Shown piece by piece: positions 4,833 to 22,537 of a DNA stretch of 43,180 bases. The notes under the pieces are model-generated. The model saw only the letters and a list, made by a program, of their open reading frames with translations. It was not told where the DNA came from and did no database searches. Positions within the stretch are counted from its first letter, which is position 1, and each line of letters begins with the position of its first letter. This DNA is from Sulfuricurvum sp. (GTDB lineage: Bacteria; Campylobacterota; Campylobacteria; Campylobacterales; Sulfurimonadaceae). The stretch is taken from positions 1 through 43,180 of the forward strand of contig NZ_JAQTYM010000015.1 in the NCBI RefSeq assembly GCF_028688295.1. The letters are read 5' to 3'. Position numbers and translations under genes: made by a program.

Positions 4833-4861
4833 AGTATAGCAAAAAAATAATGGTGTGTAAA
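4833..4861 (-). promoter_or_regulatory. Promoter of the tRNA cluster
   Basis: On the minus strand TTTACA (4861-4856), a 17-base spacer and TATACT (4838-4833) form a near-consensus housekeeping promoter with an extended TGC before the -10. Initiation would fall a few bases before tRNA-Gly. Confidence 0.7.
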
Positions 4862-4883
4862 GAGGTTTTAGAGAAAATTGCCG

Positions 4884-4889
4884 TATAAT
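4884..4889 (+). promoter_or_regulatory. -10 box of ilvD
   Basis: A perfect TATAAT lies 67 bases before the ilvD start codon and points away from the tRNA promoter. The predicted leader contains a REP-like hairpin at 4916-4935. Confidence 0.55.
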
Positions 4890-4915
4890 GGCTTTATTAT
4901 AAAAATATGAGCTAG

Positions 4916-4935
4916 ATTCCTGCCTTCGCGGGAAT
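4916..4935 (+). repeat. REP-like palindrome (GATTCC/GGAATGACG family), copy 1
   Basis: ATTCCTGC-CTTC-GCGGGAAT forms an 8-bp stem with one T-G pair and a four-base loop, flanked on the right by GACG as in the other copies. It sits in the ilvD leader between the -10 box and the ribosome site. Confidence 0.75.
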
Positions 4936-4956
4936 GACGAAAGATAAAGGATAAAA

Positions 4957-6645: not shown

Positions 6646-6653
6646 TTTTTTGC

Positions 6654-6730
6654 ATTCGCCCTGAGCTTATATGCCCTTTGGGTATGGCAAATGGGCATGT
6701 TCATGGTTCGACATGCTCACCACGAACGGG
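6654..6730. repeat. REP-like element (TTCGCCCTGAG family), diverged copy
   Basis: The outer arms ATTCGCCCTGAGCTT and GTTCATGGTTCGACATGCTC...CACGAACGG match the element at 38880-38940. The middle differs and holds its own palindrome (ATGCCC...GGGCAT). It fills the whole gap between the convergent ilvD and pglF ends, so it may act as a two-way transcription barrier. Confidence 0.7.
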
Positions 6731-8515
6731 TTACTTGCCGGAGGGTTGAAACTCCGGTACAATCTTACGCAACCCTTCAATGGTATTATCACTGAGTATG
6801 AGCTTTTCGATATCTTCTTGTAGTGTATCAATCGGATACACGGTTGAGCGGGCTATCATGATTGATTCAAACGAAGTTTTTTGTTCACTCTCATCAATTA
6901 ACAGTTCTTCATAAAGTTTTTCTCCAGAGCGCAGTCCAGTCGTAACCATTTCGATAGGTCGTGTCGCATATAAGCGGATCATCGTTTTTGCTAAATCGAC
7001 TATTTTGACCGGTTCACCCATGTCAAGGATAAAGAGTTCTCCACCGCGTGCTATGGCTGCCGCTTGGAGAACGAGTTGACACGCTTCGCTTATCAGCATA
7101 AAGTATCGGGTCACTTCAGGATGGGTAATGGTGAGCGGACCGCCTTGTTCGATTTGGGATTTGAATTTTGGGATAACGCTTCCGCTGGAACCCAATACGT
7201 TGCCAAAACGTACCGAGACGATTTCACTTTTACGCGGATCAACGTTTTGAGCATAAAGTTCAACAACCCTTTTTGTAGCCCCCATAATGTTGGTAGGGCG
7301 AACTGCTTTGTCGGTAGAGATGATAACTATCTTGCTGACATCATTGGCAATAGCGCTATCGATCAGATTTTGGCTTCCGACAATGTTATTCATAACAGCG
7401 GCATGGGGATTTGATTCGCACAAAGGAACATGCTTATACGCTGCGGCGTGGAGAATGATATCGGGTTTAGTCGTGTTGATGATGCTGTCGAGTGTTTTAT
7501 AATCGATGATATTACATAAATGCAAAATCGCGTGAGGGAGTTTTTCACCGATTTGGTAGAGGTTGTATTCACTGTGATCGATCAGAATAAGTTCTTTAGC
7601 ATGAAAATGATGGCACTGTAACGCGATTTCAGATCCGATACTTCCCCCTGCACCGGTGATGAGAACGCGCTTGTTTTGAATAAACGATTCTATTGTCTGG
7701 GTGTCCAGATCTTTGGGATGACGGGCGAGCAGTTCTTCGACCGATAGATCTTCGATTTTGTTAAGGGTATCATCAAGCAAGCGAGTCCGCTTAATCTCTT
7801 GAATCCCCGCGTTAGTTAGCCGTTCATAGGTGTCACGAAGGTATTCGTTTGGGAGTGAACCATCGATAATGGCGGCACTAATACTCTGGCTATCGATTAG
7901 ATCGCCTATTGCTTCAAGGGGATAGATTTTGATGTTGTTAAGATACGATCCGACCATGTTGAGATTTTTATCTTGTACGGCAATGATGGCTAGAGGATAG
8001 TATTCGCGTGAACCCTCAAGGGTACTTTTTATAAGATTCGCCGTGTTGGAGGATATTCCGATAAGGAGAGTTGCTTTGAGTTGGTCATGTTCAATCGCAA
8101 AACCGTAGACCACCCTTTTTAAAAGACGAACTCCCCCTAAAAAGACAAATGAGAGAAACAAATCGATAATGATGACACTGCGGGGAAAAGGGGCAAAAAG
8201 AGTTGGTGAGAGGGTATGAAGGAGGGCAAATATTCCATACGCTAAGATAAGGGCAAAAAAGAGGTTTTTCGCTTCCGAAAGTGAATAAAAACGCCAGATG
8301 ATGGTGTAATTTTTGAATCGATGAATCAAAAAAAGTTTAAGGGCGATAAGGGTGAGTGCTACCGGTACAAAAGGGGTTAAAAATTCTGGGGGGATATCAA
8401 AATTAAAACGGAGAAGATACGCCGCATAAAGGGTGAAAAGGGATAAAGTGATATCGGACAAGAGGAAAAATAGAATCCGGTTTGCGCTGCTCGGGCGAAG
8501 CCATACCGGTCTCAT
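6731..8515 (-). CDS. pglF: UDP-GlcNAc 4,6-dehydratase, membrane-bound (PglF-like)
   Basis: PglF converts UDP-GlcNAc to the 4-keto-6-deoxy sugar, the first step to bacillosamine-type sugars. This 594-residue protein has about four N-terminal membrane helices (within residues 12-125), a CoA-binding-like Rossmann region, then an SDR dehydratase domain with GAGGSIG (288-294) and STDKAVRPTNIMGATKR. Met411 and Lys415 form MxxxK instead of the usual YxxxK, as in the large membrane-bound PglF/WbpM/CapD dehydratases. It is the last gene of the glycosylation operon and overlaps the aminotransferase by four bases. CapD-like capsule enzymes share this architecture, but the PglE/PglB neighbours favour PglF. 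Confidence 0.92.
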   Translation of the reverse strand: MRPVWLRPSSANRILFFLLSDITLSLFTLYAAYLLRFNFDIPPEFLTPFVPVALTLIALKLFLIHRFKNYTIIWRFYSLSEAKNLFFALILAYGIFALLHTLSPTLFAPFPRSVIIIDLFLSFVFLGGVRLLKRVVYGFAIEHDQLKATLLIGISSNTANLIKSTLEGSREYYPLAIIAVQDKNLNMVGSYLNNIKIYPLEAIGDLIDSQSISAAIIDGSLPNEYLRDTYERLTNAGIQEIKRTRLLDDTLNKIEDLSVEELLARHPKDLDTQTIESFIQNKRVLITGAGGSIGSEIALQCHHFHAKELILIDHSEYNLYQIGEKLPHAILHLCNIIDYKTLDSIINTTKPDIILHAAAYKHVPLCESNPHAAVMNNIVGSQNLIDSAIANDVSKIVIISTDKAVRPTNIMGATKRVVELYAQNVDPRKSEIVSVRFGNVLGSSGSVIPKFKSQIEQGGPLTITHPEVTRYFMLISEACQLVLQAAAIARGGELFILDMGEPVKIVDLAKTMIRLYATRPIEMVTTGLRSGEKLYEELLIDESEQKTSFESIMIARSTVYPIDTLQEDIEKLILSDNTIEGLRKIVPEFQPSGK

Positions 8516-9624
8516 AAGAGAGCCTTTCTAATCAAAGAGCATACCTTCTCAACATCATTATATTCCATCTGAGTTCCGCTTGGGAGGCAAAGTCCTTTTT
8601 GAAAGAGGGTCTCTGAAGTTGTGTTTTGAATTGACAATGCGCTGTTGAAAAGGGGCTGCAGATGCATCGGTTTCCAAAGAGGACGGCTTTCGATGTTGTG
8701 TGTTTCAAGCAACAAACGAATAGCATTGGGATCGGTATGTTCAAACGTGAGAGTACTCAGCCAACGATTTCCGCGAGCGTCCGGTAATTCGGGCATAAAG
8801 GCAATTTCTTCGATCCCTGTTAGCCCATTACGATACCATTCGAAAATCATCCGCCGTTTTTCAATCCGCTTTGCAAGAACTTCCATTTGTGCTACCCCGA
8901 TGGCGGCGAGGATATTGCTCATGCGATAGTTATAGCCATAGTCGGTATGTTCGTAATGGGGTGCATCATCACGTGCTTGGGTTGAATAAAAACGTGCTCT
9001 CTCGATGAGTTCTTTATGTGGTGAGACGAGCATCCCTCCTCCGGAAGTGGTGAGGATTTTATTGCCGTTAAAACTGAAAACCCCAAAAGTTCCAAAGGTA
9101 CCGCTTTGCTTAGCGTTGTAGGTTGCTCCAAGACTCTCTGCTGCATCTTCGATCAGTGCAATGCCGTGAGCATCGCAAAGTGCTATGATTTTGTCTAAAT
9201 CGGCGCATTGCCCATACAAATGTGTTAGGATGAGAGCTTTAGGTTTTTTAGGGGCTTTTTGGATAGCTTCTTCAAGAAGAAGGGGATCAAGATTCCAACT
9301 TTTTGTGTCGCTATCGATAAAAAAAGGTGTTGCATTTTGATACAGTATCGGAGAAATAGAACCGATAAAAGTGAACGAAGAAGCCAAAACAATATCACCT
9401 TCTCCAACACCAAGAACACGAAGTGCCAAATGGATTGCTGCTGTGGCACTGCTGAGGGCAAGGGCATTGGGTGAGAGGGTAAGATCACGGATACTTTGCT
9501 CAAATCTCTCCACCATTGGTCCAAGCGGGGCAATGTAGTTGCTCTCGAAAGCCTGTGCAATATACTCCTGCTCACGACCACTCATGTGGGGAGGGGAGAG
9601 GAAAAGACGAGGGTGGCTCACCAT
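8512..9624 (-). CDS. pglE: UDP-4-keto-sugar aminotransferase, DegT/DnrJ/EryC1 family (PglE-like)
   Basis: This PLP enzyme should transfer an amino group from glutamate to the PglF product, giving UDP-4-amino-4,6-dideoxy-GlcNAc. The 370 residues match the family length. LFLSPPHMSGREQEYI opens the protein as in PglE/LegC-type members, IEDAAESLGATYN holds the PLP-contacting Asp, and FSFNGNKILTTSGGG contains the Schiff-base lysine, Lys189. The start overlaps the pglB stop by one base and the end overlaps pglF by four, so all three are coupled. The exact sugar is inferred from the neighbours. Confidence 0.9.
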   Translation of the reverse strand: MVSHPRLFLSPPHMSGREQEYIAQAFESNYIAPLGPMVERFEQSIRDLTLSPNALALSSATAAIHLALRVLGVGEGDIVLASSFTFIGSISPILYQNATPFFIDSDTKSWNLDPLLLEEAIQKAPKKPKALILTHLYGQCADLDKIIALCDAHGIALIEDAAESLGATYNAKQSGTFGTFGVFSFNGNKILTTSGGGMLVSPHKELIERARFYSTQARDDAPHYEHTDYGYNYRMSNILAAIGVAQMEVLAKRIEKRRMIFEWYRNGLTGIEEIAFMPELPDARGNRWLSTLTFEHTDPNAIRLLLETHNIESRPLWKPMHLQPLFNSALSIQNTTSETLFQKGLCLPSGTQMEYNDVEKVCSLIRKALL

Positions 9625-11729
9625 TATACCTTCAGCTTATAAACTTTGCTTAATGGATCGAGAATGACCGGCTCAAAGAGTTTTGGATCGTATTGTTCAA
9701 AGACAAACATTTGAATATAGCTGGAGTTTAGATAAAAGTCATCGACGATTAAAAATCGTCCATAACTTGCCATAAAAATGATATTGAGTCCTTCTGAAGC
9801 AAAATGTTGTTCGTTGATATCGATTTTCTGTTCTTGGTTATAACCTACTTGATAGAAACTTTTGATCGGCACCTCTTCACGTCCAAGTTTTATCATATTT
9901 TTTTCTTTAATAATTGAGAGGCCATTTCCGAGTTCAACGCTTTTACCACTATCTTGAAACTGCTGTGTTGTATAAAAGAAAGGTTGTTGCAGTTTATTAT
10001 CCGGATTTTTAAGATCGAGATAGCTAAAGAGGGTAACCGTTGGGAGAATATCCATCATCCGAAGGGGGAGATAGAGATAGATGTCTCGTGTTGATTTTGA
10101 TAAAACGGCGTTACTGAGCTGTAAGTTAAGTATTAGATCATCGACCGTATCAGCTTTATAAGCAGTGAGCATTTCAGCGATGATAGCACTTTTGTTGTTT
10201 TCGTACCCTTTTTCGGTGTATTCAACTGCTAGGCGTGCGATGAGAGCACTATTTTGCTGAGGTTGAACCAAAATGTAGCTAGCAGGGTAGTTGATATCAC
10301 CACTGTGTTTTCCCCCATCGACGAGAGTTTTTACATCACTATAATAACGGATTGGGTAACCGTAGTCCCACCATGTGATGACATAATCTTCTGTATTTGA
10401 AAGCGTACCAAATTTCTCAAGTACAGAGACCTCTTTTGCGGTAAATACGGTCGGTGTCATGTATTCACGAATGTGAAGATAGTTAGGGTAAAGTGCTACG
10501 CCGCTAAAAACAACCAAGACGATAACACGGAGCCATCCTTTTTCTATCGGACGGGTGATGAGCATTAGCATATAAGCAAATCCGATAGCCATTGGAGCTA
10601 CCGCATAGATAGTAAAACGTAACCCTGCACTCATTGCGATAAACCCTAGCCCAATAAGCGGCAACGTAATCAGTAACGGTCGATAAGCGAGGATTGCTGC
10701 AACATAGCCGAGTAATCCTAAAACAAAAGTAATCGGATGTCCGCTAATCCGCTCGGCAAAAATTGTAAACGGAATATTACCTGCTTCACGAACGGTTTGG
10801 GCTACATTATAAAAATGGAGACCTGCATCATCGGAAACACTGTCTCGGAAAACATACCCTTTTAACTGCCCCCATATCGGATCAATTCCTCCAGTGAAAA
10901 AGTAAAGGGAAATAATAGCTATAAAGAGACCCCAAAACCATTTTTGATCAAGGGCAGTTTTGTAATGGAAAAAAGCAAAAATAGCGAGTGCAATGGCTAT
11001 TTTAATCCACATAGGAAGAGATAAAATACCAATGATGATAAAGAGGGAAATTTTATAAAAATGGTGATTACAACGCTCAAAAATGAGAGCATATAAAAGT
11101 GTCGTTACTAAGATCGCTGTATTGAGCGAATAGCTTTGAGGATACCACCATTGGGTGAGTGCAAAAGCGAGGGTGATCGGAAGTAAAAAGCGGTTACGCT
11201 GATGGGTGATCGCTAAAATAATCGCGTAGATAGCAAATAGAGGGAGTACGATAGTGAGCATGTCGGTATCGTAGTATCCAGTCATCGTACGATTGTAATA
11301 ACTATGAGTGACGCTGGCTAAAAGGGCGGCAATAAAACCGATCCCCGTTTGTCCTAAGGTTCTGCCGATTAAAATAATAGGGATAACAATCAAAGAGCCG
11401 AAGATAGATGGCATATAAAGAATCAGGGTCTCAAAGTTAACAGGAACTATTTGAGAGAGCCAAGCGGTTAGGAGGGAGATAGGTTCATTGATCGGAGAGA
11501 GATCATTTGGCTGATGGGAACCGGCGAGAATGTCACGTGCACCCTCAGCAAAGTAATAGCCGTCATTGGTGTTGATCATGAGCTCATTATTGTATTTGAA
11601 TTGTTCCATTCCTTGAAACTCTGCAACCCAGATATAACGCATTGAGAGAGAAAAAAGGTATGCGATAACAATCAGTAAAAGAGTGAATCTAAGTACGATA
11701 TGTTCTTTTGGAAGTTTGAAAATATCCAT
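9624..11729 (-). CDS. pglB: Oligosaccharyltransferase PglB (STT3 family)
   Basis: PglB moves the lipid-linked oligosaccharide onto Asn of periplasmic proteins. This 701-residue protein has about 11-13 membrane helices and a C-terminal periplasmic domain, close to the 713 residues of C. jejuni PglB. Catalytic signatures are all visible: NTNDGYYFAEG with Asp56, NRTMTGYYDTDML, VREAGNIPF with Glu315, ERISG with Arg327 twelve residues later, and WWDYG at 453-457. In Campylobacter PglB the equivalent of Arg327 selects an acidic residue at -2, so the acceptor is probably D/E-x-N-x-S/T. A 69-base gap with a possible promoter separates it from the HAD gene upstream. Confidence 0.96.
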   Translation of the reverse strand: MDIFKLPKEHIVLRFTLLLIVIAYLFSLSMRYIWVAEFQGMEQFKYNNELMINTNDGYYFAEGARDILAGSHQPNDLSPINEPISLLTAWLSQIVPVNFETLILYMPSIFGSLIVIPIILIGRTLGQTGIGFIAALLASVTHSYYNRTMTGYYDTDMLTIVLPLFAIYAIILAITHQRNRFLLPITLAFALTQWWYPQSYSLNTAILVTTLLYALIFERCNHHFYKISLFIIIGILSLPMWIKIAIALAIFAFFHYKTALDQKWFWGLFIAIISLYFFTGGIDPIWGQLKGYVFRDSVSDDAGLHFYNVAQTVREAGNIPFTIFAERISGHPITFVLGLLGYVAAILAYRPLLITLPLIGLGFIAMSAGLRFTIYAVAPMAIGFAYMLMLITRPIEKGWLRVIVLVVFSGVALYPNYLHIREYMTPTVFTAKEVSVLEKFGTLSNTEDYVITWWDYGYPIRYYSDVKTLVDGGKHSGDINYPASYILVQPQQNSALIARLAVEYTEKGYENNKSAIIAEMLTAYKADTVDDLILNLQLSNAVLSKSTRDIYLYLPLRMMDILPTVTLFSYLDLKNPDNKLQQPFFYTTQQFQDSGKSVELGNGLSIIKEKNMIKLGREEVPIKSFYQVGYNQEQKIDINEQHFASEGLNIIFMASYGRFLIVDDFYLNSSYIQMFVFEQYDPKLFEPVILDPLSKVYKLKV

Positions 11730-11763
11730 GGCTATTTTGCCTTTTTAGTCTTGTATAAAATTA

Positions 11764-11769
11764 GTTATA
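11764..11769 (-). promoter_or_regulatory. Possible internal -10 box before pglB
   Basis: TATAAC on the minus strand lies 35 bases before the pglB start codon, in the only sizeable gap inside the cluster. It may give pglB-pglE-pglF their own promoter. The evidence is weak. Confidence 0.3.
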
Positions 11770-11798
11770 GTGTATCTAAATGCGCCATAAAAATGGAT

Positions 11799-12443
11799 TT
11801 ACTTTTCGAAAAGATAATTTTGAATGAGTGGAATAATAGCTAAGCGGGAAGTTGTTTCATAGGTTGCGTTTGAAAGAATATCACGATAGATTCCGTATGA
11901 ATTTTTATATCTGATCGTAAGCCAATCCAACTGATTTGGAGCAAAAAAATCTTTTTTTGGATTATCAGAGCAATAGATAAATTTATTTTCATTTTTAAAA
12001 TGTTTCATAACCATTTCAAAAGGGAGCGGATTAGGTTTGGAAGTGTTATAAAGATCAGTAAAGATGGGATAATCAATCCATTTTGAAAGTCCCAGCACAT
12101 TGAACTTTTGGATTTGCATCTGTGCCATTCCATCGGTAATTAGTGCGGTAGAACCAAAGCTTTTGGCTTTGTTTAAAAGAATAATTGTCTCATCAGCAAG
12201 TGTGATATTCGGGGTATGGGTTCGATAGGTCAAAATGAGAAATTCAATAGAAATTTGAAGGTGAAAATGTTCTATCAGTTTATTAAAAATAGAACCGCTT
12301 CCTTCTTTTAAAAAAAGGTTCCACATAAAATCAAATGGTTCTTGCGGTACATTAGAAATACTCGAAGCAACAGCCCAAAATCCACTTTTTACAAAATCAA
12401 TTTCGTCATAGAGGGTATCATCAAGGTCGAATACGGTAACCAT
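11799..12443 (-). CDS. HAD-superfamily hydrolase
   Basis: This 214-residue protein starts with the HAD nucleophile motif FDLDDTLYDE (Asp6, Asp8). It has the second motif LITDGMAQMQIQK, a conserved Lys in TSKPNPLPFEMV, and an acidic third motif CSDNPKKDF. The cap fits subfamily IA phosphatases. It should remove a phosphate from a small metabolite in the cytoplasm. Within this cluster it may act on a precursor of the ATP-grasp acyl donor or on a sugar phosphate, but that is inference. It lies one base after the methyltransferase stop. The base composition is AT-rich compared with pglB. Confidence 0.82.
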   Translation of the reverse strand: MVTVFDLDDTLYDEIDFVKSGFWAVASSISNVPQEPFDFMWNLFLKEGSGSIFNKLIEHFHLQISIEFLILTYRTHTPNITLADETIILLNKAKSFGSTALITDGMAQMQIQKFNVLGLSKWIDYPIFTDLYNTSKPNPLPFEMVMKHFKNENKFIYCSDNPKKDFFAPNQLDWLTIRYKNSYGIYRDILSNATYETTSRLAIIPLIQNYLFEK

Positions 12444-12444
12444 C

Positions 12445-13185
12445 TTATCTTCTTACTGCTTTACAAAACAAATTAGATGTTTCAAACATTTTTGCATCTT
12501 TTAATCGGATGAAATAGGGTATGATTTTTCCTACTTTTAAAAGATCAAATAAAATAAATACTCTTTGAAATAAGCAACTTCCATCAAACTCTATGACCGT
12601 AAATCCATTATTCTTTAGTAAATTTTCCAATTCAATTTTTGTAAAGTGCTGGTGCCACTTTTTTTCTTTTTCAACATCACCAATCAATCCATTTTGGTTA
12701 TTGAGATATCTATATTCATATTCTTCTTTGCTATGGTTTAATACATAACAATACTTATGTAGTGTAGGAAATAAAAATTTGAAATTACCCGCGTCTAAAA
12801 AAGAAAATAAATTTTTTTGAGGTGTTGTAATGATCAAAACACCCTCTTTTTTTAACACTCTATGTATTTCCCTCAGAACTTTATCTTGATCATGGATATG
12901 TTCAAGAACATCCAATATCGTTACATTGTCAAATTCATTATTTGCAAAAGGTATGTTGTCCTCAAAAAAAGTTATTTTTTCGTTATAAGGATTTTGAAGA
13001 ACAATATCTTTATTTTTATCTATACCCATATACTCCAAAGTTTTTCTTTCTTTACATTGATGTAAAAACATCCCATCATAACATCCGTAATCTAGGCATT
13101 TTGAGCCTTCAGATAAATTTTCAAAAGCATAACCGTATCTGTCATAATTAAAAGGGTTGCTAGAACTAAGGTGTGTTCGCATGCG
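12445..13185 (-). CDS. Class I SAM-dependent methyltransferase
   Basis: The protein carries the SAM-binding motif I as CLDYGCYDGMF, then FDNVTILDVLEHIHDQ and an REIHRVLKKEGVLIITTPQ segment typical of the Methyltransf_11/23 type. It probably methylates a sugar or the acyl decoration of the glycan. An upstream in-frame ATG at 13200 exists, but the ATG at 13185 has a GAGG ribosome site at good spacing and gives a smaller overlap (20 bases) with the ATP-grasp gene, so I chose it (246 residues). The gene is strikingly AT-rich with many poly-A runs, which suggests acquisition separate from the pgl backbone. Confidence 0.85.
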   Translation of the reverse strand, partial: RMRTHLSSSNPFNYDRYGYAFENLSEGSKCLDYGCYDGMFLHQCKERKTLEYMGIDKNKDIVLQNPYNEKITFFEDNIPFANNEFDNVTILDVLEHIHDQDKVLREIHRVLKKEGVLIITTPQKNLFSFLDAGNFKFLFPTLHKYCYVLNHSKEEYEYRYLNNQNGLIGDVEKEKKWHQHFTKIELENLLKNNGFTVIEFDGSCLFQRVFILFDLLKVGKIIPYFIRLKDAKMFETSNLFCKAVRR

Positions 13186-14122
13186 TAAGGACCTCGGCAT
13201 CGTATCGGAGCATTGTTAGGGTGTCTTCCCAGCTCTCTTGATAAGTGAGTTTTTCACCCATCATTTCTCGTATCATCAGTTCAAAAATATTCATTCCAGC
13301 ATGATAGCTCAGGGGGTATCCTCCTCCGACGCGAGGATTAATCTCAATAAAAATCAGTTTTTGGTCAGAGGTTTTAAATAGCTGAAGGGTCATAGGCCCC
13401 CAAGCTCCTTGCAATGACTTAGATATTTTTTTGACCTCTTTAATGATATTTTGCTCCTTGCAGGTTATTGATTTACTCACTTCACCCGCACGTACTTCAA
13501 GACGTTTGCGAGGGATGATGGCAAGAGGTTCTTGAGCTTTTGATAGATAAAAATCGACAGTATATTCTTCTCCCACCACCAGTTCTTGGAAAATATAGCT
13601 TTTGTTTTCTCGGTAAAGGGCAGATGCCTCTTGGTACGATGAGACTGGACTCGCACCAAGAGAGCAGCTAGAATTGTCTAATTTGGCGAATAAAGGATAA
13701 TTACTGTGTTCTAAATCTGCGATGATACGAGGTGTATTAAATCCATTGGAAACAAAAAATTCAAACGTCGAGCTTTTGAGATAAAAAGTATCGCATATGC
13801 TTTTTTCGGATACGGCGATGATAATACCGTGATCGACAAAAGATGCTTTTAAATCGGCGAGTATGGAAAGCTCGGTATCAATCGTCGGTATAATTAACAT
13901 AATGGTATGACGAATACAATAATTAAGGAGAAAAGGGCCGTAGCTTGGATCGTTGACACGCGGAGCTTTTGCATAAAAATCGGCAATTTGACACGCTGCA
14001 CTAAGATCGGGGACCATGTCGATTGCGTATACTTTTCCATCAGGTGCAAACCGTTTGAGGGTTTCTTGTGCGAAACGGATCAAACTAACACGTCTGCCTG
14101 CAGAGGTGATGAGAATATTCAT
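13166..14122 (-). CDS. ATP-grasp enzyme (carbamoyl-phosphate-synthase-like), probable sugar N-acyl ligase
   Basis: This 318-residue protein begins [20 protein letters not shown], the pre-ATP-grasp fold of the CarB-like/PylC-like group. It has [16 protein letters not shown] for nucleotide binding and [18 protein letters not shown], the metal-binding ENP-like segment. Such enzymes join a carboxylate to an amine through an acyl phosphate. It overlaps the pglC start region in the order pglC then ATP-grasp by four bases. In Neisseria an ATP-grasp domain is fused to the phosphoglycosyltransferase (PglB2) and produces a glyceramido sugar. I infer that this enzyme acylates the 4-amino group made by PglE. 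The acyl donor is unknown. Confidence 0.85.
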
Positions 14123-14727
14123 GATATGTGCCCGGTAAATTTTTCCATCGTTGTTTCCCCTTCTTGGGAAATTCCTTCCCGTATAAATACTTTTGCAAAT
14201 GTTTGAAAAAAGATTTTAAGATCAAACCAAAACGATATATTTTTGACGTAGTCAACATCATACCGAAATTTCTCTTCCCAGCTAATCGCATTACGCCCGT
14301 TGATTTGAGCCCATCCTGTAATACCGGGTTTAACATCATGTCGACGTGATTGCTCTAGAGTGTAGAGCGGCAGATATTCCGCTAAAAGAGGGCGTGGGCC
14401 GATGAAGCTCATCTCCCCTTTGAGGACATTAATGAGTTGGGGGAGCTCGTCCAGACTGAGGCTTCGGACCCATTTTCCAACCCCTTTTAGACGTAAGCCA
14501 TCACTGAGTAATTCTCCATTTTTATCTTTTTCATCGCTCATCGTACGAAACTTATAGATAGTAAAAATTTCCCCATGCAATCCGGGACGTTGCTGAGTAA
14601 AGAATATAGGTCGACCCATACGAATAGCGATTATAAGTGCAGTTAAAAGGATAATAGGAGAAAAAAGGATCAGTAAAAACAATGCACCAAAACGATCCAA
14701 TAAAGGTTTGATGAGGTTAACGTACAC
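14119..14727 (-). CDS. pglC: Phosphoglycosyltransferase PglC (bacterial sugar transferase)
   Basis: PglC transfers the amino-sugar 1-phosphate from UDP to undecaprenyl phosphate at the inner membrane. The protein has the re-entrant hydrophobic helix [14 protein letters not shown], then [24 protein letters not shown] and [14 protein letters not shown] chose the GTG at 14727. It gives 202 residues, places the catalytic Asp-Glu dyad at residues 93-94 exactly as in C. jejuni PglC, and makes the start read M-Y-V-N-L-I-K like that protein. A longer frame reaches an ATG at 14778 but would overlap pglA by 62 bases instead of 11. It overlaps the ATP-grasp gene by four bases. Confidence 0.93.
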
Positions 14728-15826
14728 GATGCAGTCCATACACTTCGAGATGTTTGTTGATAATTGTACTGATATCAAACTCGTTTATCGCTTTCTCTCT
14801 TCCCGCTTTTCCCATCTGCTGTGCCAAAGTAGGGTCCATAATCAATTTTTCGATCGCTTTTGAGAGGGCAGCTGAATTTTTAGGAGGGATGATAAAACCG
14901 TTAACCCCATCATCTACCGTCTCTCGACATCCTACGACATCGGTGGTTACGATCGGCAATCCCATGCTAAGAGCTTCCATGGAGGTGCGTGGCAGCCCTT
15001 CCCGATAGCTTGGTAGGACAAAAATATCGCTTTGAGAGAGGAGATGTCGGATATTGTCTTGATGTGCGAGATAGTGGATAGAAGATTGAGTCCTCATGAA
15101 CTCTTCACTCAGGCTAAATCGGTTTCCTGCATCAGGGGAGCCTATAAACTGAAAGGTCACTTGGGGATATTTTTGACTAAGAAGTGTTGCCGCTTCTATA
15201 AACTCTAATACCCCTTTGTGTTTGATCGCACGCCCTATCATCGTTACACGGAAACCTTCATCTATCTTTGGTCCGGGATGCCATGCTTGGGTATCAATAC
15301 CAACCCCCTTCATCCTAAAAACTTTTTCAGGAGTAATGATTTTTTTAGAGATTAGATACGCTGGATCGTCTTGATTGACGAACATAACGGTGTCGGAGAG
15401 TTTAAAAATACGGGTATAGAGAAATTCTATGAGAGTACGAATAGCACGGCTTTTGAAATCATTTTCGAGATAAAAACTTCCAAGCCCCTCTACGAGGTTG
15501 ATTATGCGGGGAACTTTGGCTAACACTCCTGCGATAGTGCCGTAGATATTGGGTTTTGCGGTGAAGGTATGCAGTATATCGAGCTTCAGCGGCAAAATCG
15601 CATCATAAATATTACGAATAGATCGGATCTCTTTGATGGGATTGAGGCTTGAGCGTTCAATGTCGTAGGGAATATGCGTCACATTGTGTTGCGCAAATCT
15701 TCCGCTTACCTCACCGCTTGGACAGATAGCATAAACTGTATGTCCCTGTCTAACGAGTTCTTGCATGATCGGCAAGCGGAAAAGCCAAAGATTGTAGTCC
15801 AAGTGGGAGAGAAAGCCGAAGGTCAT
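14717..15826 (-). CDS. pglA: GT4 glycosyltransferase, PglA-like
   Basis: PglA adds the second sugar (GalNAc in C. jejuni) to undecaprenyl-PP-linked amino sugar. The 369-residue protein has a GT-B fold: [20 protein letters not shown] resembles the PglA start, [11 protein letters not shown] and LVEGLGSFY follow, and the C-terminal lobe holds the E-x7-E motif [11 protein letters not shown] (Glu276, Glu284) and [14 protein letters not shown]. It lies directly before pglC in the operon, as expected for the enzyme that acts just after it. The donor sugar cannot be read from sequence. Confidence 0.88.
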
Positions 15827-16878
15827 TTTTCTGATTTTACTGAAAAAATGGAATCAATAAAATTTTTATAAATCGGGAAATATTTTTGTATTGAAAAATT
15901 ATAAGCATTTTGGAGAGCATATTCCGAATATTCAGTGTAAAGAGCCGAATTATTATAAAGCTGTGTGATTGCATCAATCCATTCATTTTGCTTTTTAGGT
16001 AAGAACCCGTTCATCCCTTCTTGGATAATAGTCCGATTTTCTCCGACAGGGCTTGCTACCGATGGCAATCCTGCCGCTTGGTATTGGATCAGTTTAAACC
16101 CTGATTTCCCTTGGCTAAAGGGATCAGTACTTAGGGGCATAATACCTACATGAGATTGTTTAAGAAGGGTAGCTTCTGTTTCACTAGACCAGTCATAAAA
16201 CTTCATAGATACACCGGGTATTGCTCTATTTTCCAATGTTTTGGAAGCAATGATAATAAGATCGTAATTAAGAGTTTTTGCAAGAGTTTGAAATACAGAG
16301 GCAAAAGCTTCAATATAGCGATAGGTGATGGGACTGCCAATCCATACTAGTGAGAAACGGTCAAACTTGTGTATAGCTACATTTTGATAGGATTCAAGAT
16401 TAATGACTGTTGGAATTTTAATGACATTGGGATTGAGTTTTCTCACATACTCTTCAAGATAATCATTTCCTACAATAACAGCGGCAGCATTTTCGACAAG
16501 ATGATCATATTTTTTTTTGAGCATTTTTTTCCCACGATAGTCTTCCCATACGTTATCATCATAATCAAGAATATAATTTTTATCTTTTAAAAACCATTTT
16601 TCAATTCCATAGGGAAGATAAGGGAAAAGTTCACGTTCGATAATAATATTTTGAGATGAGCGTAGAGATGCTATAAAGCGTTCTACGTATGATAGGATAA
16701 TTCGAAATTTTTGTTTGGGTTGATTAGAAAATAAACGAGTTAAATATTCAATAGGCATAAATGATTGAATTTCGATGTTGTAATTCATTTCAGTAAGACG
16801 GGATGCAAAAGCAAAACTACGATATCGGCTTGTCGCACCTTGTGTAGGGTATTTTGTGAAATAGGTGAGATTAGTCAT
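15823..16878 (-). CDS. GT4-like glycosyltransferase
   Basis: This GT-B protein of about 351 residues has MTNLTYFTKYPTQGATSRYR at its N-terminus, a YILDYDDNVWEDYRG segment, and a C-terminal donor lobe with HVGIMPLSTDPFSQGKSGFK and AAGLPSVASPVGENR. The TSRYR start is common in surface-polysaccharide transferases that bind a lipid-linked acceptor. The ATG at 16878 is preceded by GGGAAG and overlaps the upstream gene by eight bases; a TTG twelve bases earlier is less likely. It overlaps pglA by four bases. The sugar and linkage are unknown. Confidence 0.82.
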   Translation of the reverse strand: MTNLTYFTKYPTQGATSRYRSFAFASRLTEMNYNIEIQSFMPIEYLTRLFSNQPKQKFRIILSYVERFIASLRSSQNIIIERELFPYLPYGIEKWFLKDKNYILDYDDNVWEDYRGKKMLKKKYDHLVENAAAVIVGNDYLEEYVRKLNPNVIKIPTVINLESYQNVAIHKFDRFSLVWIGSPITYRYIEAFASVFQTLAKTLNYDLIIIASKTLENRAIPGVSMKFYDWSSETEATLLKQSHVGIMPLSTDPFSQGKSGFKLIQYQAAGLPSVASPVGENRTIIQEGMNGFLPKKQNEWIDAITQLYNNSALYTEYSEYALQNAYNFSIQKYFPIYKNFIDSIFSVKSEK

Positions 16879-17734
16879 GATACTTCCCAAAAATACCGCG
16901 TTTGTAATCGAGGTAGCCCCGTAGCATCATTTTGAATTTAGAGCATCTTTCTTTTTCGTAAAGAAGAACAATGATTATATCGACAAAAAATCTGGATTTT
17001 TCAAATTGACAATAAGTTGGAAAATTATTTTGATAAAGTTCAATAATCTTCAAACGATTTCTGAAACTATAATAACGACGTATTGGGCTGTGATTTGTAC
17101 TGAAAAATTTCTTCCAAAATATTTGATGTTGCTTTAGATTTCCTAAGTTGTGTTCTAGTATTGCATGATTGATTCGAATAACTTTAAATTTTAAAAGATT
17201 GCTGCGAAGACAATATTCGTTGTCAACATAATCTATAAATAGGTTTTCTGTAAAGCCTCCGATTTGTTGAAAGACATCTAAATTGAGTAAATTACCTGAG
17301 GTCATCGTTGTTAATATTGTCGAATAAAGTTCTTTAGTGGAACTGTTTTGCTGAAACTTATTTGCATGAAAAGGTGAAATGATACTGATTTCGGATGCTG
17401 TATGTGTTTGAATATAATGTGTCATTTTTAAAAGCATATCTTGTGTTATCTTGCTATCCTGGTCCATGGTCAAAAGCCATTTATATCCCATATTTATTGC
17501 ATTTTTGGAACCTATGTTTAATGCATTAGCGATACCTTGATTGCCGTGATTATCAATATAATAGATTTTTGAGTTTTTCAGAAGATTTTTAATAATAGAT
17601 ATCTTTTTTTGATCTGAGTTATCAACAACAAAGACGATCTCTACATCATTGATATAAGTATTAATATTATCAATTACGATGTTGTCAGGATTGTATAATA
17701 CTACTACTGCTGCTGCTGCCAAAAGGGAATTCAT
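16871..17734 (-). CDS. GT2 glycosyltransferase (rhamnosyltransferase-like)
   Basis: This 287-residue GT-A protein has AAVVVLYNP at the N-terminus, FVVDNSD, NHGNQGIANALNIG and the metal-binding TMDQDSK (Asp91, Asp93), then GGFTENLFIDYVDNEYCLR. This is the WbbL/rhamnosyltransferase pattern, a group that also includes galactofuranosyltransferases. With glf three genes upstream, it is a candidate for adding galactofuranose, but that is inference. The early codons run as repeated GCA and GTA triplets (AAAAVVV). It overlaps the methyltransferase upstream by four bases. Composition is AT-rich. Confidence 0.87.
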   Translation of the reverse strand: MNSLLAAAAVVVLYNPDNIVIDNINTYINDVEIVFVVDNSDQKKISIIKNLLKNSKIYYIDNHGNQGIANALNIGSKNAINMGYKWLLTMDQDSKITQDMLLKMTHYIQTHTASEISIISPFHANKFQQNSSTKELYSTILTTMTSGNLLNLDVFQQIGGFTENLFIDYVDNEYCLRSNLLKFKVIRINHAILEHNLGNLKQHQIFWKKFFSTNHSPIRRYYSFRNRLKIIELYQNNFPTYCQFEKSRFFVDIIIVLLYEKERCSKFKMMLRGYLDYKRGIFGKYHD

Positions 17735-18597
17735 GTATTGTCGGATGGGAAAGGTGATATTAGTTGCGATTTAAAAAATGCTTTATTCATTTGATCGGCA
17801 TATGCGCTATTGTTTTTTGCTACAACAAGAATATGCATGGGCCAAATAGCTTCTACGCAGATAATTTCCATTTTTATATAATCAATCATTTTTATTGCTA
17901 TTCGTGTTGTAAAAACGTGATGATGAAGGGCACGGTTTTCAAAGTTATTTAATGAACGTGATTTAAATTCTTGAAATGAACCAGCTCCTGTATCACGAGA
18001 TAAGTCATGTAAGCTTAAAATTTCTTCCAAGTGAGTCAAATCATTTTCTTGAATATTGACACTATAATCTTCAATTAAATGTTCTATTGTAGTAGGTGGT
18101 CTCAGATGGTCAAATGTCCCATCTTTATGTGGTAGTAATAAGATAAGGTAGCCATTGTCCTTTAAAATTCTTTTCCATTCATATAACGCTTTTATAGGAT
18201 TGGCTATATGCTCAAGTACATGAGAAGAGAGCATAAAATCATAGCTACGTGATGGAATAGGACTCATTTCGATACCGTCTAAAATATATTGATAGCCTAT
18301 TTTTTGAGAGTGTGAATAGCAATAGTGATATCCTTCTTGTTGTGTATTCCATAAAGTATGATTAGAAAAATTACTGTTATCTAATAAGTTGATTGATTGA
18401 TAAACTGGAAATATACCATTGTCTGTAAAAATCTGGCTTGGTCCACCAATTTCAAGTCCTTTCCCATTTAAGATTATTTGTTTGACAATAGCAAATGATT
18501 TGGGTTTTTGGCGATAAAATCGATTTAATACAATTAAAAATGTTCGTTTTAAACCATGTTCTATATATAAATTTAATAGTTGGTAAATGATTTTCAT
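17731..18597 (-). CDS. SAM-dependent methyltransferase
   Basis: The 288-residue protein has the motif GKGLEIGGPSQIF (motif I variant LEIGGPS), then SYDFMLSSHVLEHIANPIKA and a WKRILKDNGYLILLLPHKDG segment. DHLRPPTTIEHLIEDY follows. This is the class I methyltransferase fold of the type often found in O-antigen and glycan clusters. Its target is probably a sugar hydroxyl or an acyl chain of the N-glycan. It overlaps genes on both sides by four bases. The gene is AT-rich like its neighbours from 16.9 to 19.7 kb. Confidence 0.84.
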   Translation of the reverse strand: MKIIYQLLNLYIEHGLKRTFLIVLNRFYRQKPKSFAIVKQIILNGKGLEIGGPSQIFTDNGIFPVYQSINLLDNSNFSNHTLWNTQQEGYHYCYSHSQKIGYQYILDGIEMSPIPSRSYDFMLSSHVLEHIANPIKALYEWKRILKDNGYLILLLPHKDGTFDHLRPPTTIEHLIEDYSVNIQENDLTHLEEILSLHDLSRDTGAGSFQEFKSRSLNNFENRALHHHVFTTRIAIKMIDYIKMEIICVEAIWPMHILVVAKNNSAYADQMNKAFFKSQLISPFPSDNT

Positions 18598-19667
18598 GGA
18601 GTCTGATTCTTTTGATGCAAACCAAAAATTTGCTTAACATCTTTTTTAAATATTTCTTTTTCTGTAAATATATAGGTTCGGTAAGGATCAAAATCGATTG
18701 ATGCATCAGAAAAATTTTGGAGACAAAATTTTATTTTTGTGATTATTTGATCAACCACCTTCTCATCATCATGAAATTTATAATCTTCTGGAATAGGGAT
18801 GTCTATATCGTTTTCAGCTGCCCCTTTTTTTCCAGTTATAATACAGCATCCACATATAGCAGCTTCTCTTGGAAATCTATCTTTACCAGGATGATTACCA
18901 AAATCTATATAAACTTTAGATATAAGCAAAAGTTTAATAAGCTCATTTCTATTCATGTTGATTAGTGGTACCCACTCTAATTCAGGAGAATATTCTATCA
19001 GTTTTTTTGTAAATTCCATTCCTTTTTTTGGATTATATAAAATATGATTTTTCCGTGTAGATAAAGCATGCTTGTATTGCGATGAAGTGTAATCACTATT
19101 GATAAAATCGGATAGATAATCTATGAGCTCAATATTAATACCACGAGACAAAAGATGCTGAAAGGCATAGTGTGATTGAACAAGATGATAGTCTACCTTG
19201 TTGCCTTTCATACTATCAAGAAAATCAGTATGCATAAAATGTGACAATGAAGGACTTGGTAAGAAATAAGATAAATTGAGAATTTTGGCGAATTTATTAA
19301 AATATCCTATCAATTTAATCCAAGTTTTTTTGGATAATTTGATTGCATAATAATTATCGATACTTAACCACCAAATGATTTTTTGAACATACTGAAATTT
19401 TTGCAATAAATCAGTATTAACTTCAGGGACAATTAATATATTGGATGAATGATCATCAATTGCAAAAGTCGTTTGGGTTTGATAGCAATTATATTCAGCA
19501 GGTTTTGGGGATAACGAATAAGTATCAAAATAATAAATTCTTGTATCTAATCCTAAGTTAATAAGAGCATGAGATAGTTGATGTAGTAATTCTGGTCCTC
19601 CACTGCTTATAGACGGAGATGCTATATATATAATCGTATTAGGTGTGATATTTAATCTTTTCATCAT
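18594..19667 (-). CDS. Putative GT-B glycosyltransferase of unknown specificity
   Basis: This protein of about 357 residues begins TIIYIASPSISSGGPELLHQ, which looks like the GT-B acceptor-domain opening, and later has FTKKLIEYSPELEWVPL, YIDFGNHPGKDRFPREAAICG and CIITGKKGAAENDIDIP. The last two resemble a donor-binding lobe, with PREAA at the place of the E-x7-E element. The family could not be named with confidence. Start and stop are coupled: it overlaps glf by one base (TAATG) and the methyltransferase by four. It is the most AT-rich type of gene in the cluster and may be the most recently acquired. Confidence 0.65.
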   Translation of the reverse strand: MMKRLNITPNTIIYIASPSISSGGPELLHQLSHALINLGLDTRIYYFDTYSLSPKPAEYNCYQTQTTFAIDDHSSNILIVPEVNTDLLQKFQYVQKIIWWLSIDNYYAIKLSKKTWIKLIGYFNKFAKILNLSYFLPSPSLSHFMHTDFLDSMKGNKVDYHLVQSHYAFQHLLSRGINIELIDYLSDFINSDYTSSQYKHALSTRKNHILYNPKKGMEFTKKLIEYSPELEWVPLINMNRNELIKLLLISKVYIDFGNHPGKDRFPREAAICGCCIITGKKGAAENDIDIPIPEDYKFHDDEKVVDQIITKIKFCLQNFSDASIDFDPYRTYIFTEKEIFKKDVKQIFGLHQKNQTP

Positions 19668-20809
19668 TATTCTTTTATTAATATTGAAGATAATTGAAGC
19701 GCTTTTTCTACTATATCATCCATATCATAGTACATATATTCCGCCAGTCGTCCAAGTAAAGTCAAATTTGGGTAGTTTTTTGAGTATTCAACATATTTAG
19801 CATAGAGCTTTTGGTTTTCATTGGTAAAGATAGGATAGTAAGGGGTGTTTTTTCCTTGTATATATTTTTCTGGGTACTCTTTGAGAATTGTTGTCGTATC
19901 ACATTCGATGGGATGAATATGTTTAAACTCTGTAATTCTTGTAAAAGTGTGGTCATTAGGATAGTTTATAGTTGCTACTTTTTGATAATGTATTTGATTG
20001 ACGAGTTCAAAATCCATTTTGACACTGCGATAAGGAAGCTCTCCAAATTTACAGTCAAATAATTCATCAATCTGTCCTGTATAAATAACTTTTCCACTAA
20101 ATTTCTCCCCAAAAAGGTAAATTTCTTGTTCAGCTATAGAACCAACTTCTTTAAAATCAGTCTGTAACATAATTTCAATATTTGGATGGGCTAATAAGCT
20201 TTCAAAGAGTTTCGTATAGCCATATTTAGGAACAGCTTGGTAAATATCGGTAAAGTAGCGGTTGTCCCGATCCAATAGGATGGGAACACGTGCTGTTACA
20301 GCGCTATCCATCTCTTCAGGTTTTAGCCCCCATTGTTTGGCTGTGTAATTAACAAAGATTTTGTTATAAACATAATCAGCCAGACGCTGAAGATCTTCAT
20401 CATCAGATTGTTTGAGTTCAAGAATAGGAATCTTACTTCCTAAAGGATAAGTAGCTAAAAGTTTTTTTTCTAGCAACTTTGCCATTATTGCTGGGAAAGC
20501 TTCATAAAGGGTATTAAAATTAAAGGGGAGGGAAATGTTTTTTCCGTCAACAAAAGCTAAAACATGATGTTGATAAGTTTCCCATTCTGTGAATTGAGAG
20601 AGGTATTTCCAAACTTCTTCATTATTGGTATGAAAAAGATGGGGACCATACTTATGAATTAAAATATTATTTTGGTCGCGAATATCGTAGCAGTTTCCCC
20701 CTATATGTGGACGTTTGTCAATCAATAGAATTTTATCCCCATGTTTCGATAGGCGCTCAGCCATTACTGTACCCGCTAATCCGGCGCCAACGATCAAATA
20801 GTCAAACAT
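19667..20809 (-). CDS. glf: UDP-galactopyranose mutase
   Basis: Glf interconverts UDP-galactopyranose and UDP-galactofuranose with reduced FAD in the cytoplasm. The 380-residue protein starts with the FAD Rossmann motif FDYLIVGAGLAGTVMAERL and has DKRPHIGGNCYD, KYGPHLFHTNNEEVW, the family segment YTAKQWGLKPEEMD and DRDNRYFTDIYQAVPKYGY. All are typical of bacterial Glf. Its place inside an N-glycosylation operon, three bases after the flippase gene, implies that the glycan contains galactofuranose. Confidence 0.97.
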   Translation of the reverse strand: MFDYLIVGAGLAGTVMAERLSKHGDKILLIDKRPHIGGNCYDIRDQNNILIHKYGPHLFHTNNEEVWKYLSQFTEWETYQHHVLAFVDGKNISLPFNFNTLYEAFPAIMAKLLEKKLLATYPLGSKIPILELKQSDDEDLQRLADYVYNKIFVNYTAKQWGLKPEEMDSAVTARVPILLDRDNRYFTDIYQAVPKYGYTKLFESLLAHPNIEIMLQTDFKEVGSIAEQEIYLFGEKFSGKVIYTGQIDELFDCKFGELPYRSVKMDFELVNQIHYQKVATINYPNDHTFTRITEFKHIHPIECDTTTILKEYPEKYIQGKNTPYYPIFTNENQKLYAKYVEYSKNYPNLTLLGRLAEYMYYDMDDIVEKALQLSSILIKE

Positions 20810-20812: not shown

Positions 20813-22537
20813 TTACCTTGATTCATTTTGTGCTAATCTCAATTTTTGGTTAGTGTGCAAAAGTTCAACTTTGACATTGCACCCCTCGATTGTACTAAGT
20901 CGATGAGCAATCACGATCAATGTTTTATCTTTACATATTTTATAGATTTCTTCCATAATTTTCGCTTCTGTATCATTGTCGAGAGCACTAGTAGCTTCAT
21001 CGAGAACTAATATTTCAGGATTTCCATAGAGTGCACGGGCGATGGCAATGCGTTGGCGCTGACCTCCGCTGAGCTTGATTCCACCTTCACCAACCATGGT
21101 ATTAATCCCTTGGTGTTGGATTTCCAAAAACTCCAAAAGAGACGATTGGGTGAGAGCCTCTTTGATTTTGTTGTTATCGATAGGTTTCCCAAAAGCGACG
21201 TTTTGAGCTACTGTACCATCGAAGAGATAGATACTTTGCGGTATATAACCGATTTTACTTCGCCATGCTTTGATATTATTTTCATTTAATGTTATGCCAT
21301 CAACACTGATGGATCCTTTTTTAGGACGGTATAGGCCTATAATCAGATCAACTAATGTCGATTTCCCACTGCCGCTTTCGCCGATAAAAGCAATTTTATC
21401 CCCTTTATTAATACTGAGTGAGATATCTTTCAAAATAGGTTTGTTTTCATTGTATTCAAAAGTGATCTGATCGAGTTGAAGCGTTTTCTTGAACTCTATA
21501 GATTCGTTTTGCAGCTTTTCTGCATCGTACATTAGATTATTATGAATAATATCGAGAGAGCTTTTGTAAAAAAGGATTTGATTATAACCAGATAAGATGC
21601 GATTGGCTGATGGCATAAGTCGATATAGCCCTAAAACAAACATAGAGATAAGAGCCAACGCGCCGGAAATATCACTTTGATATTTGTCCACGAGATAAAT
21701 AATCATAAAGATGATAATTCCAAATCCTAGAGCTTCTAAAAATAGTCTAGGAAAATGGGTCAGTGTTTCATTACGGATATTAGCCTGTGCATAGCCGGCA
21801 CTGGCATGGTCGAATTTTGCGAGAATTGATTCAGTATTGGAAGTGAGCTTCATCATTTTAAAGTTACCGAGGCTGCTTTTGATAATTTCAAAAAACTTTT
21901 TTTGATGCTCTTCTCGGGAAATCCCCGCTTTTTTTATGGCACGAGATACGGTCAAAATTAGAAAAAAAGCATTGACAATAAGGATTGTACTAATAAGCAA
22001 AGTAATCTTCCAATTGATATAAAGCATTATCACATAGATAAAGATGACCACAAAGATTTCACTGAGCATGAGCAAAAGACCTGAAATGAGAGTGGTCATG
22101 TTTTGTGCTTCGTTGATAATAGCTTTACTAAGATCAGCACTGTTTTTATCAATAAAATTACGATAACTCATCCCCAAATAATTTTCAAAGAGACGATAGG
22201 CAATGAGATGATAACGTCCTTTTGAAAATTTGGCGAGTAGATAAAAATATCCTAGATTGAGTAATGAGCGTAAAAAATAAAAAATTAAAAGGGTTGCACC
22301 GATTGTTGTCACAAATTGGATATCATTTTTAAATTTAAAAAATGTGTATAGGTATTCAGTGTAAGAATTCGTATGAATATAATCAAAATTACTGGCTATG
22401 TTGATAAAGGGGAGTATAGCCCCTACCCCAATCATTTCGATCAACGAGACAGTAATAGAGATAAATATTAATAGAATAAGAAACTTCTTATCGTGTCGTG
22501 TAAGAATGGAAAAAAGTTTGGTAAAAAATACCCTCAT
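20813..22537 (-). CDS. pglK: ABC transporter, lipid-linked oligosaccharide flippase (PglK-like)
   Basis: This 574-residue half-transporter has six N-terminal membrane helices and one ATPase domain with Walker A GESGSGKST (386-394), Q-loop YIPQSIYLFDG, signature LSGGQRQRIAIARAL and Walker B ILVLDEATSALD. C. jejuni PglK has about the same length (564) and flips the undecaprenyl-PP oligosaccharide to the periplasm. The helical part also resembles general lipid A and peptide exporters, so assignment rests mainly on the operon. It overlaps the coiled-coil gene by four bases and is followed by glf after three. Confidence 0.9.
   Translation of the reverse strand: MRVFFTKLFSILTRHDKKFLILLIFISITVSLIEMIGVGAILPFINIASNFDYIHTNSYTEYLYTFFKFKNDIQFVTTIGATLLIFYFLRSLLNLGYFYLLAKFSKGRYHLIAYRLFENYLGMSYRNFIDKNSADLSKAIINEAQNMTTLISGLLLMLSEIFVVIFIYVIMLYINWKITLLISTILIVNAFFLILTVSRAIKKAGISREEHQKKFFEIIKSSLGNFKMMKLTSNTESILAKFDHASAGYAQANIRNETLTHFPRLFLEALGFGIIIFMIIYLVDKYQSDISGALALISMFVLGLYRLMPSANRILSGYNQILFYKSSLDIIHNNLMYDAEKLQNESIEFKKTLQLDQITFEYNENKPILKDISLSINKGDKIAFIGESGSGKSTLVDLIIGLYRPKKGSISVDGITLNENNIKAWRSKIGYIPQSIYLFDGTVAQNVAFGKPIDNNKIKEALTQSSLLEFLEIQHQGINTMVGEGGIKLSGGQRQRIAIARALYGNPEILVLDEATSALDNDTEAKIMEEIYKICKDKTLIVIAHRLSTIEGCNVKVELLHTNQKLRLAQNESR

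What the first reader, a model, noticed from the sequence alone, without database searches (positions are those of the whole stretch)
13166..14727. ATP-grasp gene coupled to PglC where PglD should be: a predicted acyl-amido (glyceramido-like) N-glycan sugar
The cluster has PglF, PglE, PglC, PglA, PglB and PglK homologues but no PglD-type left-handed-helix acetyltransferase. An ATP-grasp enzyme overlaps pglC by four bases. In Neisseria the PglB2 protein is a phosphoglycosyltransferase fused to an ATP-grasp domain and yields a glyceramido-acetamido-trideoxyhexose. The same two activities appear here as split, coupled genes in a locus with a true PglB oligosaccharyltransferase. This predicts N-linked glycans whose first sugar carries a ligated acid, such as glycerate or an amino acid, on N4 rather than acetate. 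I know of no description of this in N-glycosylation.
Basis: partly seen in the sequence, partly recalled or inferred. Interest (0 to 1): 0.75.

Follow-up and report, generated by a model that had tools for sequence, protein, structure and literature searches.

The report
Swapped acyl cassette in N-glycan locus
In this bacterium's protein-sugar-tagging gene cluster, the gene that usually puts an acetyl group on the first sugar has been replaced by a small gene set that probably attaches a different acid (most likely glycerate) using ATP, which would give proteins an unusual linking sugar.

Summary
ATP-grasp gene 13166-14122(-) overlaps pglC by 4 bp in a PglB N-glycosylation locus, and the draft genome (93% complete) has no PglD. 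Twelve of 36 congeners carry PglD beside PglC/PglB. Against all 8 congener loci compared, DNA homology stops at 11.59-11.80 kb and resumes at 14.13-14.16 kb, so a block (ATP-grasp, methyltransferase, HAD hydrolase) sits where seven of them have PglD. The window PglC nests among congener PglCs, so the swap was in situ.

In Neisseria the pglB/pglB2 choice is a known exchange of the same kind (acetyltransferase or ATP-grasp beside the PGT), and PglB2 gives the glyceramido sugar GATDH; one Neisseria-type genome has PGT and ATP-grasp fused. I therefore favour ATP-dependent N4-acylation of UDP-4-amino-QuiNAc, probably with glycerate. At least two other PglB loci carry the module.

ATP-grasp in place of PglD: well supported. 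Glycerate: inferred. Methyltransferase role: unknown. No chemistry was tested. PglD is also missing from 24 of 36 congeners, so absence alone is weak evidence. New variant of a known kind.

The parts
13166..14122 (-). ATP-grasp ligase (PRK12767/CPS-like), predicted to ligate an acid to N4 of UDP-4-amino-QuiNAc
11799..12443 (-). HAD-family phosphatase-like hydrolase, conserved partner of the ATP-grasp
12445..13200 (-). class I SAM methyltransferase in the replaced block; 29% G+C; a similar gene lies within two genes of the ATP-grasp in 1 of 80 named loci
14119..14739 (-). PglC phosphoglycosyl transferase (ATG start 14739; TTG 14778 or GTG 14727 possible)
11730..14135 (.). replaced block: no blastn homology to 8 congener loci, which match on both sides (edges vary 11,591-11,801 and 14,125-14,159)
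9624..11729 (-). PglB oligosaccharyltransferase (WWDYG at residue 453)
8512..9624 (-). PglE/LegC-type aminotransferase
6731..8515 (-). PglF-type 4,6-dehydratase
14717..15826 (-). GT4 glycosyltransferase (PglA position)
20813..22537 (-). PglK-type ABC flippase

Best explanation
The locus makes an N-linked glycan whose first sugar is a 2-acetamido-4-acylamido-2,4,6-trideoxyhexose other than diNAcBac. PglF and PglE make UDP-4-amino-QuiNAc. Instead of PglD with acetyl-CoA, the ATP-grasp enzyme activates an acid as an acyl phosphate and joins it to the C4 amine. The HAD enzyme either makes that acid from a phospho-acid (such as phosphoglycerate) or removes a phosphate after ligation. PglC, kept from the congener-type locus, loads the sugar on the lipid; glycosyltransferases extend it, PglK flips it and PglB transfers it to asparagine. 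The most likely acid is glycerate (a GATDH-like residue, 274 Da instead of 228 Da), perhaps O-methylated by the methyltransferase. Shown by calls: gene content, the replaced block, family relationships, ATP-grasp/HAD linkage, kept conserved residues. Inferred: all chemistry.
For: Slot: of 18 congener loci that have PglE and a visible slot, 12 hold PglD, 1 a NeuD-type cassette, 3 a short hexapeptide transferase, 2 nothing recognised; the window holds ATP-grasp-MT-HAD. Homology breakpoints in 8 of 8 congener loci tested. No PglD in the genome. Window PglC groups with those of G011 (PglD-linked) and G035 (NeuD cassette) at 100/93 inside the congener clade. HAD directly downstream in 72 of 80 named loci, only 2 further HAD hits among their 797 other genes of 150 aa or more. 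26 of 30 module genomes tested (of 80) lack PglD at 1e-15. Neisseria-type genus, 46 genomes: ATP-grasp only 20, PglD-type only 19, both 5, neither 2; in 15 of 15 fetched ATP-grasp loci (of 25) a PGT is beside the ATP-grasp and in 0 of 15 is there a PglD. One fused PGT-ATP-grasp ORF; 8 fused PGT-PglD. Papers: pglB and pglB2 mutually exclusive, PglB2 gives GATDH, and PGT, flippase and OTase have relaxed donor specificity (PMC11130364 passages); GATDH by MS in N. oralis and N. mucosa (PMC6959607 section 8); HAD and formyltransferase named for N. oralis in the S2 Fig legend.
Against: No biochemistry. PglD is absent from 24 of 36 congeners too, so absence alone proves little. Identity to the Neisseria-type ORF is only 36%, so the acid may differ. 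The HAD is not directly downstream in 8 of 80 loci (in 2 of these it is two genes away, in 1 the contig ends) and is missing in 2 of 15 Neisseria-type loci, so it may be dispensable. 4 of 30 module genomes have a PglD-like gene, 6 of 80 loci a PglD-like gene over 100 bits in the stretch, and G072 has PglD plus a distant ATP-grasp. Only 51 of 80 loci show a PglE-like gene, so the family may act on other amines. The fold matches also include biotin carboxylases and PurK, so the fold does not name the reaction. 5 of the 19 PglD-only Neisseria-type genomes show no PGT near that gene, and the 46 genomes are related, so Fisher 1.5e-6 overstates. Two congeners with PglE have no recognised acyltransferase in the slot. 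PglC specificity is unknown.
Confidence: 0.8

Rival explanations
1. Same mechanism, but the acid is not glycerate: an amino acid (serine from phosphoserine), glycolate (from phosphoglycolate), lactate or another hydroxy acid.
For: After 2pn1, the best-ranked fold match is the L-amino acid ligase 3vot; PylC is at rank 18. The HAD profile also hits phosphoglycolate phosphatases. Identity to the fused Neisseria-type ORF is only 36%.
Against: The motif PRxRxEVRxGEVSK is shared by the window and the Neisseria-type fused protein; PglB2 makes GATDH.
Confidence: 0.35
2. The ATP-grasp/HAD pair modifies a different sugar or the extended glycan, and the C4 amine of the first sugar is left free or is acetylated by an unlinked enzyme.
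For: 51 of 80 loci, not all, have a PglE-like gene, and 46 of 80 a same-strand PGT in the stretch, a lower bound. Five weak hexapeptide hits exist in the genome. Two congeners keep PglE without a recognised acyltransferase in the slot.
Against: Occupation of the PglD slot, PglB/PglB2 alternation in Neisseria and here, fusion to the PGT. The genome's hexapeptide hits (43.6 bits or less) are like those found beside true PglD in congeners.
Confidence: 0.12
3. Assembly artefact or non-functional insertion in a draft genome.
For: 137 contigs. MT and HAD are AT-rich, 29.1% and 33.3% G+C against 41.0% for the window. A decayed module exists in G267.
Against: Intact overlapping ORFs, conserved residues kept, homology to congeners on both sides, and the same module in other PglB loci, L022 and L210.
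Confidence: 0.03

Closest known systems
Neisseria PglB2 (ATP grasp/PGT, O-glycan GATDH)
   Same: PGT and ATP-grasp families; exchange with a PGT-acetyltransferase (PglB) at one locus is already known there (PMC11130364); full-length similarity to a fused ORF of that architecture
   Different: Genes are separate here (a split pglB2 also works), an HAD and a methyltransferase share the block, and the glycan is predicted to be N-linked by PglB, not O-linked.
Campylobacter jejuni Pgl N-glycosylation (diNAcBac)
   Same: PglF, PglE, PglC, PglB and PglK homologues in one locus
   Different: PglD replaced by ATP-grasp/MT/HAD; predicted first sugar is not diNAcBac
Helicobacter pullorum N-glycan (PMC6025236, passages)
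   Same: A Campylobacterota PglB pathway whose wild-type reducing-end sugar is not diNAcBac
   Different: There it is HexNAc, not a 4-acylamido sugar
PRK12767 carbamoyl-phosphate-synthase-like ATP-grasp family (PDB 2pn1)
   Same: Sequence and fold match
   Different: Known in these records only as CPS-like; context here suggests a reaction

Membership tests
PglB-type N-glycosylation locus | STT3/PglB oligosaccharyltransferase with WWDxG motif and a PglK-type flippase | tested here: met
   (NCBIfam equivalog cut-offs for PglB and PglK not reached)
diNAcBac (C. jejuni-type) pathway | PglD acetyltransferase in locus or genome | tested here: not met
PglB2-like PGT/ATP-grasp pair | small PGT next to or fused with a homologous ATP-grasp ligase | tested here: met
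PglB2-like PGT/ATP-grasp pair | fusion in one polypeptide | tested here: not met
   separate ORFs overlapping by 4 bp; split pglB2 reported functional (PMC4569582 passage)
PglB2-like PGT/ATP-grasp pair | product is a glyceramido (GATDH) sugar | not testable with these tools
   needs mass spectrometry or enzymology
PRK12767 ATP-grasp family | score to NF009405 above its cut-off | tested here: not met
   301 bits against 390, though a full-length match
HAD phosphatase | DxD, T/S, K, D residues | tested here: met
   D6, D8, T103, K136, D160; roles of the residues recalled

The most novel reading that the evidence does not exclude
The stretch between pglC and pglB/pglE is a hot spot where whole acyl-donor cassettes are exchanged (PglD; short hexapeptide transferase; ATP-grasp/MT/HAD; ketoacyl-synthase/oxygenase/SDR/NeuD). 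Bacteria of this genus would then vary the N4-acyl group of the N-glycan linking sugar as surface antigens are varied, including a glyceramido or O-methyl-glyceramido sugar not yet reported on N-glycans in the papers I could search.
Probability: 0.5. Interest if true: 0.75.

Novelty: new variant of a known kind. Interest (0 to 1): 0.6.

Why it matters
That the reducing-end sugar can vary is known (HexNAc in H. pullorum; GATDH on Neisseria O-glycans). If this is true, the C4-acyl group of Campylobacterota N-glycans can also be swapped by a cassette. The ATP-grasp/HAD pair, seen here next to PGT/PglE genes in Bacteroidota, Pseudomonadota, Bacillota and Campylobacterota, would be a widespread ATP-dependent alternative to PglD and help to read many unnamed glycan loci. 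It predicts a 46-Da shift on glycopeptides, gives enzymes for new linking sugars, and the swap within one genus is a natural experiment on how PglC and PglB tolerate a changed first sugar.

Tried and rejected
Considered and rejected: PglD hidden elsewhere in the genome; chance neighbour; transfer of the whole module with PglC (one search places PglC with congeners). An unrelated carbamoyl-phosphate role is thought unlikely from context only.

Led nowhere: the viral-contig scan (3 stretches, no relatives). Plasmid hits are all under 60% identity (110 records); five of the records were opened and gave the HAD lead. Paper searches: searches gave 0 papers, but they used the hyphenated 'ATP-grasp', and PMC11130364 writes 'ATP grasp', so those zeros are weak. 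Searches (2 papers; 2; 16, 15 listed) showed nothing on this by title; 12 papers hold 'GATDH'; by title, Neisseria/type IV pili or an unrelated use of the letters. Searches (14 papers; 16; 220, 20 listed; 15,743, 20 listed) were listings. Three's non-Neisseria papers were checked and only cite the 2007 paper. PMC2824669 and PMC10653937 (passages) did not bear on it. Chamot-Rooke 2007 and Viburiene 2013 are not held; their content comes from citing papers.

The methyltransferase could not be assigned; a weak match lies near the ATP-grasp in 1 of 80 loci (two in the looser).

Rows left out of counts: 30 of 80 module genomes were tested for PglD; 15 of 25 ATP-grasp-positive Neisseria-type loci were fetched; the PglC tree used hits of 230 bits or more, 97 rows; the ATP-grasp tree 35 of 104 rows. 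My ORF-picking script drops some overlapping genes, so PGT counts (27 of 80 directly upstream, 46 of 80 in the stretch) are lower bounds; of 24 PglD-type loci it recovered 23. The 18-locus slot count leaves out L183, whose order differs, and contigs where the slot is cut off.

Full report
Observation. The window holds a minus-strand N-glycosylation locus with PglF, PglE, PglB, PglC, a GT4 at the PglA position and a PglK-type flippase. The ATP-grasp gene (13166-14122) overlaps the end of pglC by four bases. No PglD is among the proteins of the locus scanned. The genome (2.6 Mb, 137 contigs, 93.3% complete) has no PglD_N match. A PglD profile built from six relatives finds nothing above 43.6 bits there, against 326.7 and 322.8 bits in two congeners.

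Replacement in place. PglB occurs in 33 of 36 congeners. Twelve of 36 have a strong PglD (279.9 bits or more), and in all twelve it lies beside PglC and/or PglB: directly between them in seven (G002, G008, G011, G013, G018, G022, G025), with one more gene before PglB in G003, followed by PglE in G017 and G030, and at a contig end in G001 and G007. The other 24 have no strong PglD, so absence is common in the genus. DNA comparison with eight congener loci shows homology ending at 11,591-11,801 and resuming at 14,125-14,159 in all eight. The block holds ATP-grasp, methyltransferase and HAD. The window PglC falls with those of G011 and G035 (100/93) inside the congener clade. The window ATP-grasp falls in a group of Campylobacterota, Thermodesulfobacteriota, Myxococcota and Bdellovibrionota rows (99/99) and was found in none of the 59 other relatives at 1e-20. 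The simplest reading is that PglD was replaced in this lineage while PglC stayed.

The missed partner. Plasmid relatives first showed an HAD hydrolase after the ATP-grasp. Of these 80, 72 have the HAD directly downstream on the same strand; among their 797 other genes of 150 aa or more there are only two further HAD hits. Of the 8 exceptions, two have the HAD two genes away and one contig ends. Twenty-one of 80 show PGT-ATPgrasp-HAD-PglE in order. Of 30 such genomes tested, 26 lack PglD at 1e-15. In the window the methyltransferase separates ATP-grasp and HAD.

Other N-glycan loci with the module. L022 (G092) and L210/L037 (a Helicobacteraceae MAG) have PglB, PglC, ATP-grasp, HAD, PglE and PglF together. 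In L036/G436 PglB and PglC lie on the other strand, beyond three or four genes. G264 has the module, and PglB elsewhere in the genome. G267 carries a decayed copy with stops. None of G092, G264 and G267 has a PglD hit above 41 bits; G072, with a distant ATP-grasp, has one of 262.5 bits.

Link to Neisseria PglB2. PMC11130364 (passages) calls PglB2 an ATP grasp/PGT that makes GATDH, says that pglB and pglB2 are mutually exclusive and share the PGT domain, and infers relaxed donor specificity of PGT, flippase and OTase. Five genomes with strong ATP-grasp hits are enriched in the neisserial uptake sequence (its meaning recalled). In the genus of G757, 25 of 46 genomes have the ATP-grasp and 24 of 46 a PglD-type gene of 150 bits or more: both 5, ATP-grasp only 20, PglD only 19, neither 2 (Fisher 1.5e-6, not corrected for kinship). 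In the five with both, the stretch round the PglD-type gene shows no PGT; the same holds for five of the 19 PglD-only genomes. Of 15 ATP-grasp loci fetched (of 25), 15 have a PGT beside it, 0 a PglD, 13 the HAD, and one (L163, G866) has PGT and ATP-grasp fused in a 527-aa ORF. Eight PglD loci have PGT fused to PglD. Window ATP-grasp is 36%, PglC 58% and HAD 35% identical to the L163 proteins over the aligned parts. A split pglB2 keeps function, and the GATDH unit is 274 Da (PMC4569582, passages). N. oralis and N. mucosa type strains carry GATDH (PMC6959607, sections 7 and 8 read), and its S2 Fig legend names an HAD hydrolase and a formyltransferase for N. oralis (passage); L138-L142 show an HAD and a gene like the formyltransferase (identified by Pfam in L138 only).

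Mechanism. AlphaFold2 models are confident (mean pLDDT 93.9 and 97.1). The ATP-grasp matches 2pn1 first, then L-amino acid ligase, biotin carboxylases, PurK and PylC; the HAD matches sialic-acid-9-phosphatases first, then dehalogenases and others. Folds alone do not name the reactions. Conserved residues are kept. The HAD family has its own invariant signature YRxHxP, suggesting a shared substrate. C. jejuni PglB is said to need a C2 acetamido group on the first sugar (PMC6025236, passage), so a changed C4 group should be tolerated. I infer an acid-amine ligation at C4, with glycerate most likely because of GATDH. Expected residue mass: 274.1 Da, or 288.1 if O-methylated (my arithmetic).

Limits. 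No chemistry was done. The HAD is not universal. Only 51 of 80 loci show a PglE-like gene, and 6 of 80 also a PglD-like gene over 100 bits. Some congeners with PglE have a short hexapeptide transferase (L179, L180, L201) or nothing recognised (L181, L186) in the slot. Others have no PglE beside PglC/PglB and may start with another sugar. The organism is placed in Campylobacterota by inference from its nearest named matches. The claim that this is unreported on N-glycans rests on open-access papers only, with the hyphen weakness noted.

Noticed in passing
L184 (G035:C16) 4119-8796: In this congener the PglD slot holds two ketoacyl-ACP synthase III genes, a Rieske oxygenase, an SDR reductase and a NeuD/PglD-type acyltransferase, which looks like another acyl variant.
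   Followed up: partly
L179 7072-7473, L201 7152-7556, L180 11909-12451: Short proteins with hexapeptide repeats (Pfam for L179 and L180; L201 by similarity) occupy the PglD slot in other congeners.
   Followed up: partly
L176-L178, L185, L187, L190: These congener PglB loci show PglC-PglB-PglF with no PglE beside them, implying a different first sugar.
   Followed up: no
G267:C1:803167-804390 and 807592-807939 (L023): Decayed PglB and ATP-grasp genes, each with a stop inside, beside PglE pieces.
   Followed up: no
L138 6575-7375: A formyltransferase-domain gene sits between HAD and aminotransferase; similar-looking genes lie at that place in other Neisseria-type loci, so N-formylation may be a further option.
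   Followed up: no
window 15823-20809: AT-rich block (29.5-34.5% G+C) of glycosyltransferases, a second methyltransferase, an unassigned 357-aa protein and a UDP-galactopyranose mutase, probably the variable part of the glycan locus.
   Followed up: no
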